From: a virus
Virus record (IMG/VR): IMGVR_UViG_3300045806_000019
Location: 1-22,222 of that record
DNA length: 22,222 nucleotides
Reading direction: 5' to 3' (one strand)
Within the stretch, counting starts at the first letter, position 1. The number at the start of each line of letters is the position of its first letter. Below, piece after piece: positions 334-8,266 of the stretch. A program made the translations under genes and the position numbers. Under the pieces are notes generated by a model, which saw nothing but the letters and a program-made list of their open reading frames with translations, was not told the DNA's origin and made no database searches.

Positions 334-527
334 TACTTCTTCCTACCGTCTTTCTTAAAATTACCAAATATGTTATTATTAATTTTGTTCAATTCAGAAT
401 CGCAGTAATCACGTATCGCCTCTACCCTAAAAATATAATTCATTTTTTCATTTTGATTTATGGCAGGAGACTTGATTTTTTCAATTAAATCGATTACGTT
501 CACTGGTATCATATGTAGATTACTCAT
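333..527 (-). CDS. Small conserved-position protein of unknown function between 55 and 47
   Basis: A 64-residue product beginning MSNLHMIPVNVIDLIEKIK and ending with a lysine/arginine-rich tail (KKDGRKK). I do not recognise a family. The start at 527 is chosen over the in-frame ATG at 536 because the AAGGAG ribosome site would directly abut the latter, while it stands nine bases before the ATG at 527. The gene overlaps the end of 55 by eight bases and its stop overlaps the start of 47, so it is part of one translationally coupled 55-orf-47 unit. The middle looks helical, with the charged stretch EAIRDYCDSELNKI; no signal peptide or membrane segment is visible. A role in late transcription or recombination is only suggested by its neighbours. 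Confidence 0.75.
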   Translation of the reverse strand: MSNLHMIPVNVIDLIEKIKSPAINQNEKMNYIFRVEAIRDYCDSELNKINNNIFGNFKKDGRKK

Positions 528-1053
528 CAGTCTCATCTCCTTGAAACAGTTCTACGCCTGTTACTTTACTAGGTTTCTTTGCCTTTGTCAACTTATCTTC
601 GAAGGATTTTATGATTTCTGACGAATATTCGTTCGAATTTAAATGAATATTTTCAGCGTCAGACCATAACATATTCATCAAGAAACTATTTTCAAAGTTT
701 TTATGTTTAATGTATGTATGTTTGTGTTCTTTGGTTATTCTTCGAATAAAGGCATTCCACGCTATCTGTGTGAAATAACCAAAGGGATTGTTTGTTTTGT
801 TTGGATTAAAATTATCAACGGCTGCTATACAATCCAATTCACCATCTGACTTCATTTCATCTATATATGAATAACCAGAAAAATTAGGTCTTTTAGCAAG
901 ATTTTCATTAATAAGAATGATTGCTTGACCTATATACGTTGCAATCTGTGGTTTTGGTTTATGAAGTCTTTCAGACTCCTCAAGTTTTGTTTTATGTTCT
1001 ATCATAGCAGTATACAAAGTTTTATTGTTTATGTAATTTTTTGGCTTCTTCAT
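520..1053 (-). CDS. 55: Late-transcription sigma factor gp55
   Basis: A 177-residue protein, close to the 185 residues of T4 gp55, the phage sigma that replaces sigma-70 on host RNA polymerase and reads the TATAAATA element of late promoters. The segment at residues 88-106 (TNNPFGYFTQIAWNAFIRRI) is the sigma region 2-like core helix typical of gp55. A short hydrophobic patch near the C-terminus (GVELF) followed by an acidic tail could be the sliding-clamp contact, but that is inference. The start is set at 1053 because AGAGGA lies seven bases before that ATG; an in-frame TTG at 1071 is upstream of the ribosome site and is rejected. Cognate TATAAATA sites occur before genes 13, 22 and 23 in the same window, which supports the role. 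Confidence 0.92.
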   Translation of the reverse strand: MKKPKNYINNKTLYTAMIEHKTKLEESERLHKPKPQIATYIGQAIILINENLAKRPNFSGYSYIDEMKSDGELDCIAAVDNFNPNKTNNPFGYFTQIAWNAFIRRITKEHKHTYIKHKNFENSFLMNMLWSDAENIHLNSNEYSSEIIKSFEDKLTKAKKPSKVTGVELFQGDETDE

Positions 1054-1064
1054 CAATTTTCCTC

Positions 1065-1092
1065 TTGACAATATTTTCTAATTTGGTATAAT
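1065..1092 (+). promoter_or_regulatory. Candidate sigma-70 promoter on the opposite strand, facing uvsW
   Basis: On the plus strand TTGACA (1065-1070) is followed after 16 bases by TATAAT (1087-1092), with a TG one base upstream of the -10 (extended -10). It sits in the short gap between 55 and uvsW and would send RNA antisense into the 3' end of uvsW. The sequence TTTGGTATAATAC is identical to that of the uvsY promoter on the other strand. No coding frame follows it. The -10 lies in an 11-bp palindrome (GGTATAATACC), so the minus strand also carries a weaker TATTAT there. Promoter activity is inferred from the sequence only. Confidence 0.45.
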
Positions 1093-1118
1093 ACCACTGT
1101 ACGAATGAAATAGATTAG

Positions 1119-2579
1119 TTATTGAATAGTAATTGGTACTTTGATGATTCTATAGTTGAATTGTTCCTCATTGTATATCTTTACCCTTTCCATGAAATGA
1201 ATAATTGTGATGTTTTTCTTGCTTCTGTAGATAAAATCATCTGCAATATCAAATAATTCTGCTGTATTCTTTGTCTTACTCTTTCTCAATACACGACCAA
1301 TTGATTGAAGATTTCTAATTCGTGACTTCGAAGGCGAAGCAAATATTACGTTATTAAGGTTTTTTATATTAACACCTGTGGAAAATGTTCCGTAGGATGC
1401 AACAATAATAGCATCATCGCTTTCTTCAACAATTCGTCTTATATCTTCACGTATTTGCCCTTTTACTGCGCCTGAAACAAAGAATATTTTCCTATTGGGA
1501 CATATTTCTTTCAATATGTTATATAACTTTTTTCCATGTTTATCGACATATTGAAAGAGTAAAAGGGTGTTACCTTTCAGTGATAGGGTAAGGTTTATTA
1601 TGAATTTATTACGTTCTTTTAGATTAATGAGATAATCCATCTCGGTCTGATAGTCCATCTTAGATACTATTTTTCTGATGTCTTCTGGATAAGACAATAC
1701 TATAGCTTTTATACTAAGATCAGCCAAATGACCTTGTTCGATCAGGGTTTTGGTATCTATGGCATTATAAACAGGTCCAAATAATCCCTCTAATACTAAC
1801 TTATTAGTCATAGTACCGTCCAGAGTACCAGAAAATCCAAATCTATACTTACAATTTGGAAGTTTTGACATAATACCTATAAGAGATTTGGCCTTAAATA
1901 AATGAGCCTCATCCCCTACGAAAAGTTCTATTTTCTCGAAGAATTTAATGTTTAATTTATATATAGACTGCCATGTACTAATTGTTATTGGTTTATGAGA
2001 ATTCTTCTCTTCACCACTATAGATGCAATGTACAAACGAATCAACATCCATACCATAATCTGCAAAATCTTGTTTTAATTGTGTTACAAGATTTATAGTA
2101 GGAACAACTATTAACGTTTTAACACCATAAAAACGAACTAGTAAATATATACTAAAAGATTTACCTGATGCCGTTGGTGATAATATTAATGATCTATCAT
2201 TACTTACGCAATGATTAAATATTGACATTTGATATTCACGTGGTACATATTCACTATTTTGTGATATATTTTTGAAGAATTCGTTTACTTGTTCTTCTGA
2301 TGGTGGTGTTATAGTGAAGTCAGAAACATATTCTATGGAATACCCTCTGACATTGCAAAATTGCTTGACATATGATAGTAAACCAGCATATAATGCACCA
2401 GTTAAAAGATTATACAGACGTATTTTACCATCCCACATTCTGTTCTGATATGTGGGCATATGCTTTGCGTTAGGAACATCAAAGGTGAAGAAATCACTTA
2501 ATTCATAGGCTAATGAAGGCTCACATGTTATTTTTATGTAAGCCTCATTGATTTTTTCTATATGAAATATATCTGACAT
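1119..2579 (-). CDS. uvsW: UvsW ATP-dependent DNA/RNA helicase
   Basis: A 486-residue superfamily 2 helicase, near the T4 UvsW length of about 500. Residues 41-57 (MPTYQNRMWDGKIRLYN) match the characteristic UvsW N-terminal domain. Helicase motifs appear in order: SPTASGKS (134-141, Walker A), DEAH (223-226), FSGTL (249-253, motif III) and QSIGRVLR (425-432, motif VI). UvsW unwinds R-loops and branched DNA, helping the switch from origin-primed to recombination-primed replication. The ATG overlaps the uvsY stop by one base (TAATG) and has no strong ribosome site, implying translational coupling to uvsY. I see no late promoter before it. Two plus-strand promoter-like sequences lie over its two ends. 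Confidence 0.95.
   Translation of the reverse strand: MSDIFHIEKINEAYIKITCEPSLAYELSDFFTFDVPNAKHMPTYQNRMWDGKIRLYNLLTGALYAGLLSYVKQFCNVRGYSIEYVSDFTITPPSEEQVNEFFKNISQNSEYVPREYQMSIFNHCVSNDRSLILSPTASGKSFSIYLLVRFYGVKTLIVVPTINLVTQLKQDFADYGMDVDSFVHCIYSGEEKNSHKPITISTWQSIYKLNIKFFEKIELFVGDEAHLFKAKSLIGIMSKLPNCKYRFGFSGTLDGTMTNKLVLEGLFGPVYNAIDTKTLIEQGHLADLSIKAIVLSYPEDIRKIVSKMDYQTEMDYLINLKERNKFIINLTLSLKGNTLLLFQYVDKHGKKLYNILKEICPNRKIFFVSGAVKGQIREDIRRIVEESDDAIIVASYGTFSTGVNIKNLNNVIFASPSKSRIRNLQSIGRVLRKSKTKNTAELFDIADDFIYRSKKNITIIHFMERVKIYNEEQFNYRIIKVPITIQ
2365..2394 (+). promoter_or_regulatory. Possible second antisense promoter inside uvsW
   Basis: TTGACA (2365-2370) and TATAAT (2389-2394) are separated by 18 bases on the plus strand, inside the 5' part of uvsW. 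There is no extended -10. Transcription would run toward the uvsW start and on across uvsY. As it lies within coding sequence and AT-rich DNA throws up such matches, this is a weak call. Confidence 0.25.
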
Positions 2580-3013
2580 TATACACCATTTTTAAATTTT
2601 ATATATTCAACTGCTGTTTTTATGTTATAACCACGATAAGATAGTGTTTTGATTATATCAGTCAGTAAATCTACTTTTTCTTGTTGCAGGATTATTTTAA
2701 GTGAAAGTTCTTCTAACTGACGATCACTTTCTATATACATAGATGCTTCTGATTTATTAACAGTACCTCTGGGGGGTAATTCCCAACCTTTTTTACGGGT
2801 TTCTTCATTATGTCCCTGAGTATAAAATTCAAATTTGTCTTTTTTTAAAACTTTCAAATCTAACTCATATTTTCTTAATAATAGACGTTCAGATGTTAAT
2901 ACTGTATAATATTTGTGATGTAAACTTGGTATTTTAAGACTTTCTTTGTCTAGATCAATCTCATCTATTTTAGAGTCTTTTTGCCACTCAGAACTTATGT
3001 CTTCTAATTTCAT
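2579..3013 (-). CDS. uvsY: UvsY recombination mediator protein
   Basis: A 144-residue protein, close to the 137 residues of T4 UvsY. It starts MKLEDISSEWQKDSKID, like T4 UvsY (MRLEDLQEELKKD...), and has the expected central charged region with YTQG (T4: YSGRG) and a C-terminal helical part ending in a RGYNIKTAVEYIKF segment that parallels T4 RGFAIKHIQDMRAF. UvsY loads the UvsX recombinase on single-stranded DNA coated by gp32. GAGG lies eight bases before the ATG. A sigma-70-type promoter directly precedes it, so uvsY and uvsW would be expressed before late transcription begins. Identification rests on N- and C-terminal resemblance to T4 UvsY and its place before uvsW. Confidence 0.88.
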   Translation of the reverse strand: MKLEDISSEWQKDSKIDEIDLDKESLKIPSLHHKYYTVLTSERLLLRKYELDLKVLKKDKFEFYTQGHNEETRKKGWELPPRGTVNKSEASMYIESDRQLEELSLKIILQQEKVDLLTDIIKTLSYRGYNIKTAVEYIKFKNGV

Positions 3014-3046: not shown

Positions 3047-3075
3047 ATTATACCAAAAATATTTAATAATGTCAA
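3047..3075 (-). promoter_or_regulatory. Sigma-70-type early/middle promoter of uvsY
   Basis: On the minus strand TTGACA (3075-3070) is followed after exactly 17 bases by TATAAT (3052-3047), with an extended -10 (TGG before TATAAT). Both hexamers are perfect consensus. The -35 overlaps the stop codon of the gp3-like gene, and transcription would begin about 30 bases before the uvsY ATG. It separates the late structural genes upstream from the recombination and regulatory genes downstream. Confidence 0.78.
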
Positions 3076-3597: not shown

Positions 3598-3876
3598 TTA
3601 GTCTCCGTTCATTATAATTGCGTATTGTACTTCTGCTATAGCCTCGTCTAAAGTAAGATTAAACCATTCGCCATGTGTTCTATTGTAATTCATTATTTTA
3701 TGTATTGCTTTTTCTACATTTCGTACTTGCTTTTCGTCAACTTCATGTGTATAATGTACATGAAGTTTATATGGAAATCCAGTCTGTAATTGCTTCAACC
3801 TTTTTTCAGGATGTTTTGATAAACCAATCTTATATGGTCCATAATCACAACCAATTACATATATAAATGAATTCAT
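3598..3876 (-). CDS. Small GIY-YIG-family nuclease (T5orf172/MUG113-like)
   Basis: A 92-residue protein built of a single GIY-YIG-type domain: YVI at residues 6-8, YKIGLSKHPEKRLKQLQTG at about 16-34 with the conserved arginine, a glutamate in NVEKAIHKIM, and the GEWFNL motif near the C-terminus, which is usual in the T5orf172/MUG113 branch. Such genes are common in phage genomes; some act as homing-type nucleases, but for most the substrate is unknown. It overlaps the larger GIY-YIG gene by ATGA and ends two bases before the gp3-like gene, whose ribosome site it contains. It has no DNA-binding extension, unlike its neighbour, so it may be a remnant, a partner or a separate nuclease. The domain is clear, the role is not. 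Confidence 0.8.
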   Translation of the reverse strand: MNSFIYVIGCDYGPYKIGLSKHPEKRLKQLQTGFPYKLHVHYTHEVDEKQVRNVEKAIHKIMNYNRTHGEWFNLTLDEAIAEVQYAIIMNGD

Positions 3877-4613
3877 TGTATAGTTCCTGCTTTTCTACGT
3901 GACCACGCTTCCTTGAGCTTCTGACGCTGTTTAAATGCCCATTCAGGGTTAGCCCAACGATTTGATAATTGCTCAGAACAAAGCTTACCCTGTTCTTCCC
4001 TTGTCATTTTAATATCAACAGATTCTTTTTTGCGTGGGCGGTTAAATTCACCAGATTCCCATTTCATTTTAAGAGATTCAGAAGTTTTTCTCTTTGCTTC
4101 TTCAGAACGAACTGTGCCTAATTTAGCATTTCTCAGTTTGGCCTTGTGTTCATCCATGAATTTGGTTCCTTTTTTTGCATCTGAAATAGACTTGGCCTTT
4201 TCTACAGAACAAGGACCAGTTGATTTACCCTTCTTAGAATGGGAAATTTTTTGACCAATTATTTTGATGTTTTCATCATATGTATGCCATGCTTTATTAT
4301 TAGTGATACATAGATTATAATATCTTGGTGTTTCGTTTATTGGTTTAATTTCTTCTGGTTTAATCATTGATAGATAGCGTTGTTCTTCAACATATGTTTT
4401 CAGACGGGTTAATATATTTGTTTTTAATATCCTACGTTTGAAATCTTGTGGACGATGTAGATGTGCCTGTCTCATCCATGATGAACTACAAACGTATCCA
4501 TCATCTACAGTACCCCAATGACATCCAACATAATATCTTTTATGTTTTCTATCATACCAAATATACACAAAACCATACTTTTTGTTTTCATTACTGTTGC
4601 GCTTATAACTCAT
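3873..4613 (-). CDS. GIY-YIG homing endonuclease with NUMOD3 repeats
   Basis: A 246-residue protein with an N-terminal GIY-YIG nuclease domain: FVYIWYD at 15-21, RYYVGCHWG at 27-34, arginine in SSWMRQA near 48, and a probable metal-binding glutamate in the helix TYVEEQRYL near 76-77. The C-terminal half has lysine-rich repeats of the NUMOD3 type (ISHSKKGKS, SISDAKKGT, LRNAKLGT, KRKTSESLKMKW), which bind DNA in I-TevI and Seg enzymes. It is most likely a free-standing homing endonuclease that moves itself between co-infecting phages; no intron is seen. It lies just after the capsid gene, a favoured insertion site. The start codon follows a hairpin and U-run directly and its ribosome site is inside the hairpin. 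Confidence 0.9.
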   Translation of the reverse strand: MSYKRNSNENKKYGFVYIWYDRKHKRYYVGCHWGTVDDGYVCSSSWMRQAHLHRPQDFKRRILKTNILTRLKTYVEEQRYLSMIKPEEIKPINETPRYYNLCITNNKAWHTYDENIKIIGQKISHSKKGKSTGPCSVEKAKSISDAKKGTKFMDEHKAKLRNAKLGTVRSEEAKRKTSESLKMKWESGEFNRPRKKESVDIKMTREEQGKLCSEQLSNRWANPEWAFKQRQKLKEAWSRRKAGTIQ

Positions 4614-8020: not shown

Positions 8021-8266
8021 TTAGTACCTAAATGCTACAGGGACTGCTAACATGTTAGCAGTCCCTACTATTGTATCGGTGGGGGCTTTGTTAATAACAA
8101 CATATTGTGCATTAGAAATAGTTATACTTCCATATACAGTACCATTAGCATATGCTACGTTGGCAACACCTGCTGCACCAGTATTGATGGCACGAATTAA
8201 AACATTGTTACTTACTGTTGTGGCAGATGAAATACCAGATTCAATACCTAATAATTTAAGAATCAT
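8021..8266 (-). CDS. Small beta-rich protein of unknown function in the head cluster
   Basis: An 81-residue product beginning MILKLLGIESGISSATTVSNN. After a short start it alternates hydrophobic and small polar residues (VLIRAINTGAAGVANVAYANGTVYGSITISNAQYVVINK), the pattern of a small beta sandwich, and ends PVAFRY. There is no signal peptide or transmembrane stretch. I recall similar small orfs before g21 in other marine T4-likes but cannot name a function. Its start overlaps the stop of the upstream gene (TAATG), and it ends two bases before gene 21, so it is co-expressed with head assembly genes. A minor capsid, decoration or core component is a reasonable guess, nothing more. The 3' end encodes a perfect palindrome. 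Confidence 0.72.
   Translation of the reverse strand: MILKLLGIESGISSATTVSNNVLIRAINTGAAGVANVAYANGTVYGSITISNAQYVVINKAPTDTIVGTANMLAVPVAFRY
8039..8066. repeat. 28-bp perfect palindrome before gene 21
   Basis: AGGGACTGCTAA, the four bases CATG, and the exact reverse complement of the first arm. In the transcript this makes a 12-bp stem with a CAUG loop near the 3' end of the 81-residue gene, with no U-run after it. It ends about 20 bases before the gene 21 ATG. It could be an RNA processing or translation control hairpin, or a protein-binding site. Confidence 0.85.

What the first reader, a model, noticed from the sequence alone, without database searches (positions are those of the whole stretch)
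1065..1092. Consensus promoter on the opposite strand between 55 and uvsW, with the same core as the uvsY promoter
Seen: TTGACA, 16 bases, TGG-TATAAT on the plus strand in a window whose genes are all on the minus strand. The sequence TTTGGTATAATAC is shared with the uvsY promoter. It lies in the intergenic gap and points into the 3' end of uvsW, with no gene downstream. Known: in T4 uvsW is expressed later than uvsY, and UvsW activity early would hurt R-loop-primed replication. Inference: an early antisense RNA could hold down uvsW until late infection.
Basis: partly seen in the sequence, partly recalled or inferred. Interest (0 to 1): 0.6.

Follow-up and report, generated by a model that had tools for sequence, protein, structure and literature searches.

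The report
Conserved backward promoter before late sigma gene

Summary
In detail: TTGACA-16-TATAAT (with TGG before the -10) lies at 1065-1092 (+), opposed to every gene of this T4-like phage contig (3 perfect promoters in the window, 0.075 expected). The site is strongly conserved. Among loci chosen only by gp55 homology, an antisense promoter of at least 10/12 lies within 260 bp upstream of gp55 in 54 of 64 (window group), 83 of 93 (cyanophage-like) and 71 of 93 (pelagiphage-like) loci; shuffles give 7-9. The two marine groups also have a sense promoter for gp55; the window clade lacks it but keeps the antisense one. Just after the antisense -10 is a short palindrome around TGT at the predicted start site; its arms vary but stay complementary (clearest in pelagiphage-like phages).

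In most relatives another ORF separates uvsW from the promoter; in one subclade the promoter sits upstream of uvsY and faces away from uvsW. uvsW overlaps uvsY and has no late promoter here. What stays constant is that gp55 lies on the sense side. My preferred reading, a sigma70-dependent boundary or brake on transcription entering the gp55 unit, is inference; no RNA data were available.

The parts
1065..1070 (+). antisense -35 box TTGACA; just upstream of and touching the gp55 ribosome-binding site on the other strand
   Evidence: conserved as TTGACT/TTGACA/TTTACT in relatives
1087..1092 (+). antisense -10 box TATAAT, preceded by TGG (extended -10)
   Evidence: present in nearly all relatives that keep a uvsW-55 gap
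1092..1101 (+). start-site region TACCACTGTA: TGT at 1098-1100 with short complementary arms TAC/GTA; predicted start near 1099. Weak in the window itself, clearer in relatives
   Evidence: sequence; pattern and controls in relatives
520..1053 (-). gene 55, late sigma factor; ATG at 1053 preceded by AAGAGG. Constant sense-side neighbour of the element
   Evidence: phrog_234, E 1.1e-45; start read from sequence
1119..2579 (-). uvsW helicase; its 3' end is the first gene that an antisense transcript would cross
2579..3013 (-). uvsY; its stop overlaps the uvsW start
   Evidence: phrog_231
3047..3075 (-). sense promoter of uvsY-uvsW, TTGACA-17-TATAAT
   Evidence: sense promoter of at least 10/12 in 33 of 44 relatives

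Best explanation
The site is a genuine, old sigma70-type early promoter that fires backwards out of the gp55 transcription unit into the preceding genes. Supported by comparison: its existence and conservation, its independence from a sense promoter in the window clade, and its position sense-upstream of gp55 whichever gene it faces. Inferred: it acts in cis as a transcription boundary or brake. Host sigma70-RNA polymerase bound at, or leaving, this promoter collides with or blocks polymerases coming from the uvsY-uvsW or late-gene side, so that less read-through reaches gp55 (and 47, 46) while host sigma70 is active. As sigma70 transcription gives way to gp55-dependent transcription the brake would fade and the late sigma factor could rise. 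The palindrome at the start site may slow promoter escape or bind a regulator; its role is not established.
For: Antisense promoter in 54/64, 83/93 and 71/93 loci chosen by gp55 homology, against 7-9 in shuffles; named cyanophages, HTVC008M and DLP_6 have it. Antisense promoters of at least 11/12 are rare elsewhere in the same loci, 0.05 per kb. Window clade: antisense 48 of 55 tips, sense 8 of 55, so it is not a by-product of a sense promoter. gp55 is on the sense side in every arrangement, whereas the gene on the antisense side is ORF X, uvsW or the gene before uvsY. In cyanophages the sense and antisense -35 boxes overlap, which should make polymerase binding mutually exclusive. Competition between polymerases at bidirectional E. 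coli promoters, at high activity, is documented (PMC12825309).
Against: No RNA or protein data. In phages with genes inserted between the element and gp55, gp55 keeps its own sense promoter, which a brake far upstream would not control. In the uvsY-head subclade the element lies upstream of the uvsY promoter, so it could only damp read-through. A pure brake does not explain the start-site palindrome or the similar first 20 nt of the RNA in some phages. Several lineages lack the element altogether.
Confidence: 0.38

Rival explanations
1. Cis-antisense RNA control of the upstream unit: the early transcript pairs with uvsW, ORF X or uvsY mRNA and lowers, delays or protects it.
For: The transcript must cross these genes. 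In insertion cases the element stays next to the 3' end of ORF X or uvsW rather than next to gp55. Antisense RNA is known in T4-like cyanophages: CfrI of S-PM2 (PMC2984593); PMC10976474 says antisense transcription is observed in Kyanoviridae and may protect mRNAs.
Against: The facing gene differs between lineages, and in one subclade it is not part of the uvsY-uvsW-X unit. uvsW shares an operon with uvsY and has no late promoter here, so a uvsW-specific delay is not indicated.
Confidence: 0.24
2. The promoter makes a short regulatory RNA, or it belongs to a small set of promoters whose start-site palindrome is the operator of a phage regulator.
For: Few copies exist per genome and they resemble one another within a genome while differing between genomes: CAC..GTG in G002, AGCTATGT at three Melnitz promoters, AACC..TTGT..GGGTTC in S-RIM8. 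Arm complementarity exceeds re-paired controls in the pelagiphage-like group and, at 3 bp, in the window clade.
Against: No Rfam match; no extra synonymous constraint over the first ~150 nt of uvsW crossed; loop length varies among close relatives, unusual for a dimer's operator.
Confidence: 0.18
3. R-loop replication origin: the backward transcript primes DNA synthesis, as the uvsY promoter does at T4 oriF.
For: Early promoter without a gene of its own beside uvsY/uvsW; T4 origins are promoters whose RNA forms R-loops, and UvsW unwinds them (PMC3016281).
Against: GC-skew extremes of S-RIM8, Melnitz and HTVC008M do not fall at the element (a weak test). No sign of an unwinding element was sought or found.
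Confidence: 0.08
4. Non-functional: chance match, or a by-product of the symmetry of a bidirectional promoter.
For: The window is AT-rich; the opposite strand at the same spot reads TGG-TATTAT; bidirectional promoters are common in bacteria (PMC12825309).
Against: Conservation far above shuffles; antisense arm kept in a clade without the sense arm; the comparable plus-strand perfect promoter at 2365 is not conserved.
Confidence: 0.05

Closest known systems
Bidirectional (divergent) sigma70 promoters of bacteria (PMC12825309)
   Same: In cyanophage-like relatives the gp55 sense promoter and the antisense promoter overlap and point apart
   Different: There the overlap is through inverted -35 boxes; in the window clade only the antisense arm remains, and the arm is conserved across a wide range of phages
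CfrI antisense RNA of cyanophage S-PM2 (Millard 2010, via PMC2984593)
   Same: Antisense RNA in a T4-like phage
   Different: CfrI lies at psbA and a homing endonuclease gene; this is a promoter beside gp55 and no RNA has been shown here
Antisense transcription of T4 gene 32 (Belin 1987, listed in PMC3014915)
   Same: Antisense transcription of a T4-like core gene
   Different: Different locus; no relation to the late sigma factor
Lambda paQ, antisense promoter in the late-activator gene Q (own knowledge)
   Same: A backward promoter beside the gene of the late-transcription regulator
   Different: paQ lies inside Q and its RNA overlaps Q; here the RNA leads away from gp55, and no CII-like activator is known
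T4 oriF at the uvsY promoter (PMC3016281)
   Same: Promoter near uvsY and uvsW
   Different: oriF is the sense MotA-dependent uvsY promoter; no origin evidence exists here

Membership tests
sigma70-type early promoter | -35 TTGACA, 16-18 nt, -10 TATAAT | tested here: met
   12/12 in the window; conserved
sigma70-type early promoter | transcript starts 6-9 nt after the -10, early in infection | not testable with these tools
   no RNA data
bidirectional promoter | a matching sense promoter at the same place | tested here: not met
   window clade: sense 8 of 64 against shuffled 6.8. Met in cyanophage-like relatives, 80 of 93. The opposite-strand TGGTATTAT in the window has no -35
cis-antisense RNA regulator of uvsW | transcript complementary to the target in all members | tested here: not met
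   ORF X usually comes first; one subclade faces away from uvsW
cis-antisense RNA regulator of uvsW | target regulated apart from its operon partner uvsY | tested here: inconclusive
   anatomy argues against: overlap with uvsY, no own late promoter; expression not measured
T4 R-loop origin | replication starts and RNA-DNA hybrid at the promoter | not testable with these tools
   only GC skew was checked, no support
known structured RNA | match to an Rfam family | tested here: not met

The most novel reading that the evidence does not exclude
A deeply conserved cis-regulatory device of T4-like phages of the cyanophage/pelagiphage type: a host-sigma70 promoter pointing backwards at the border of the late sigma-factor unit, with a palindrome of variable sequence at its start site, which couples the decline of host sigma70 activity to the rise of gp55 and so times the early-to-late switch.
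Probability: 0.22. Interest if true: 0.8.

Novelty: new variant of a known kind. Interest (0 to 1): 0.6.

Why it matters
These phages are among the most abundant in oceans and lakes. How they control the middle of infection is poorly understood: cyanomyoviruses lack MotA and Asi, and middle promoters could not be identified in Melnitz (PMC2984593; PMC9004378). A conserved antisense promoter beside the late sigma gene is a concrete, testable candidate for part of the early-to-late switch, and can be examined in cultured cyanophages and in HTVC008M.

Tried and rejected
Chance: rejected by conservation in loci chosen by gp55 homology and by the non-conserved control site at 2365. Constraint from the gp55 ribosome-binding site: it could explain only the bases next to the -35, not TATAAT or the spacing. 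Conserved antisense gene or RNA in the first stretch: no extra synonymous constraint in the last 48 uvsW codons (obs/exp 0.93-1.15, baseline 1.10-1.15); a raised stretch around 50-60 codons from the end coincides with conserved helicase residues and was not pursued. Shared core with the uvsY promoter as a regulatory link: not conserved. Intrinsic terminator for the sense transcript: stems of 3-6 bp without a U run, judged too weak. Which strand forms the start-site palindrome: wobble-pair counts did not decide; in the cyanophage-like group pairing is not distinguishable from re-paired controls (17 of 41, control mean 13, maximum 18). Replication origin: GC skew gave no support. Near-identical phage DNA: none found. 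Stazic 2016 on antisense transcription in cyanophages is not held, and no held paper was found that maps transcript starts at gp55.

Full report
OBSERVATION. It lies in the 65-bp gap between uvsW (1119-2579, -) and gene 55 (520-1053, -), opposed to all genes. The 13-mer TTTGGTATAATAC occurs only here and in the uvsY promoter. Three perfect promoters occur in the window against 0.075 expected. Gene identities were checked by profile: gp55 phrog_234, UvsY phrog_231, UvsW_N.

CONSERVATION IN THE WINDOW CLADE. Relatives were fetched by protein homology, not by the promoter. In gp55 loci of about 60-73% identity, almost every locus with a uvsW-55 gap of 36-101 bp carries TTGAC[TAC], TTTAC[TC] or a close variant, then 16-17 nt, then TATAAT on the antisense strand. 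The invariant TATAAT column is partly by construction, because that alignment was anchored on it; the independent figures are the promoter counts. Within 260 bp upstream of gp55, 54 of 64 loci of this group have an antisense promoter of at least 10/12, 8 of 64 a sense one, and shuffles give 6.8. The other plus-strand perfect promoter, 2365-2394 inside uvsW, scores mostly 7-8 of 12 in the same relatives, a useful negative control.

DEEP CONSERVATION. Named phages show the same: ACG-2014a and -f, P-RSM3, S-MS29, S-P4, S-RIM8, S-SM2, Sf-CH8, DSL-LC03, HTVC008M and Stenotrophomonas phage DLP_6, some with one or two mismatches, and a weaker form in Melnitz. Scans with S-RIM8 and HTVC008M gp55 gave groups with 83 of 93 and 71 of 93 antisense promoters and 80 of 93 sense promoters in each; shuffles gave 6.6 and 8.8. 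In many cyanophage-like loci the two promoters overlap through inverted -35 boxes. The window clade has lost the sense arm, or never had it, and keeps the antisense arm, which argues against a mere symmetry by-product. Upstream of gene 55 in T4 no such promoter is seen.

START-SITE PALINDROME. Directly after the antisense -10 many phages have a short palindrome around TGT at the predicted start: CCGG-TATGT-CCGG, GGTCTA-TG-TAGACC, AACGG-TGT-CCGTT, AACC..TGT..GGTT, CAC-TAT-GTG. In the pelagiphage-like group 21 of 45 distinct sequences have at least 4 bp, against 4.4 (maximum 10 of 200) when arms are re-paired between sequences. In the window clade 38 of 42 have at least 3 bp, control 26 (maximum 32). 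In the cyanophage-like group the excess (17 against 13, maximum 18) is not significant, because the stems hardly vary. The left arm lies before the predicted start, so the antisense RNA should not contain the hairpin; its role is open. A few other copies exist per genome: at sense promoters of a primase-like gene in G002, two small ORFs in Melnitz and gp88 in S-RIM8, and antisense beside tail-fibre-like genes in G002 and G008.

WHAT STAYS CONSTANT. In most relatives an ORF (called methylamine utilization protein in cyanophage records; here ORF X) lies between uvsW and the element. In a set of pelagiphage-like loci new ORFs sit between the element and gp55, and the element stays just after ORF X, 320-990 bp from gp55; in L148/L155 it stays after uvsW. 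In one subclade (support 85) in which the uvsW-55 element is missing, an antisense promoter lies about 85-95 bp upstream of uvsY, divergent from the uvsY promoter and facing away from uvsW; in L122/L123 and L132/L135 it has the same CATTTATG start-site motif. So uvsW is not the constant target, while gp55 is on the sense side in every arrangement. On a gp55 tree the antisense state changes 23 times against 42 in shuffled labels; some of the counted losses are these displacements.

MECHANISM. Supported by comparison: position, conservation, independence of the sense arm. Inferred: function. I favour a boundary or brake by transcriptional interference, active while host sigma70 polymerase is in charge. 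The antisense-RNA reading remains possible, since cis pairing needs no extra conservation; the absence of extra synonymous constraint in the last 48 uvsW codons argues only against a conserved RNA or ORF in that stretch. An R-loop origin has no positive evidence.

LIMITS. No expression data; promoters scored by consensus; many IMG/VR records are fragments, so some absences may be truncation; related sequences were de-duplicated only for identity of the upstream stretch, so the counts are not independent events; hosts unknown. The literature library is partial (Stazic 2016 not held), so an antisense start at this locus may already have been recorded in cyanophage transcriptomes.

Noticed in passing
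window 2365-2394 (+): A second perfect plus-strand promoter (TTGACA-18-TATAAT) inside uvsW; not conserved in relatives, probably chance.
   Followed up: yes
loci of the pelagiphage-like group, e.g. L297, L356, L369: Short palindrome with a TGT loop and covarying arms at the predicted start of the antisense promoter; function unknown.
   Followed up: partly
G002 10067 (+); G002 93586 (+); G008 67602 (+): Other copies of TATAATCAC..GTG: sense to a primase-like gene, and antisense at the start of a 68-72 aa ORF between tail-fibre-like genes.
   Followed up: partly
G016 34448 (-): A 12/12 antisense promoter directly upstream of the terminase large-subunit gene.
   Followed up: no
clade with L061, L066, L070, L072, L073: The antisense -35 (TTGACA or TTGCCA) is repeated 11 bp further on, and both copies change together in L070/L072: a possible binding-site repeat.
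   Followed up: no
L326, L310, L351, L360, L311: New ORFs (81, 201, 229 aa and others) inserted between the antisense element and gp55 in pelagiphage-like contigs.
   Followed up: partly
window 6186, 7345, 18137 (-): TATAAATA late-promoter motifs upstream of genes 23, 22 and a 13-like gene.
   Followed up: no
window 8039-8066: A 28-bp hairpin with a 12-bp stem near the end of an 81-aa ORF, scored as a plus-strand terminator.
   Followed up: no
window 3598-4613 (-): Two ORFs whose start (MNSFIYVIGC, YGFVYIWYDRKHKRYYVGCHWG) looks like GIY-YIG nucleases, between the capsid and tail-tube genes; judged by eye only.
   Followed up: no
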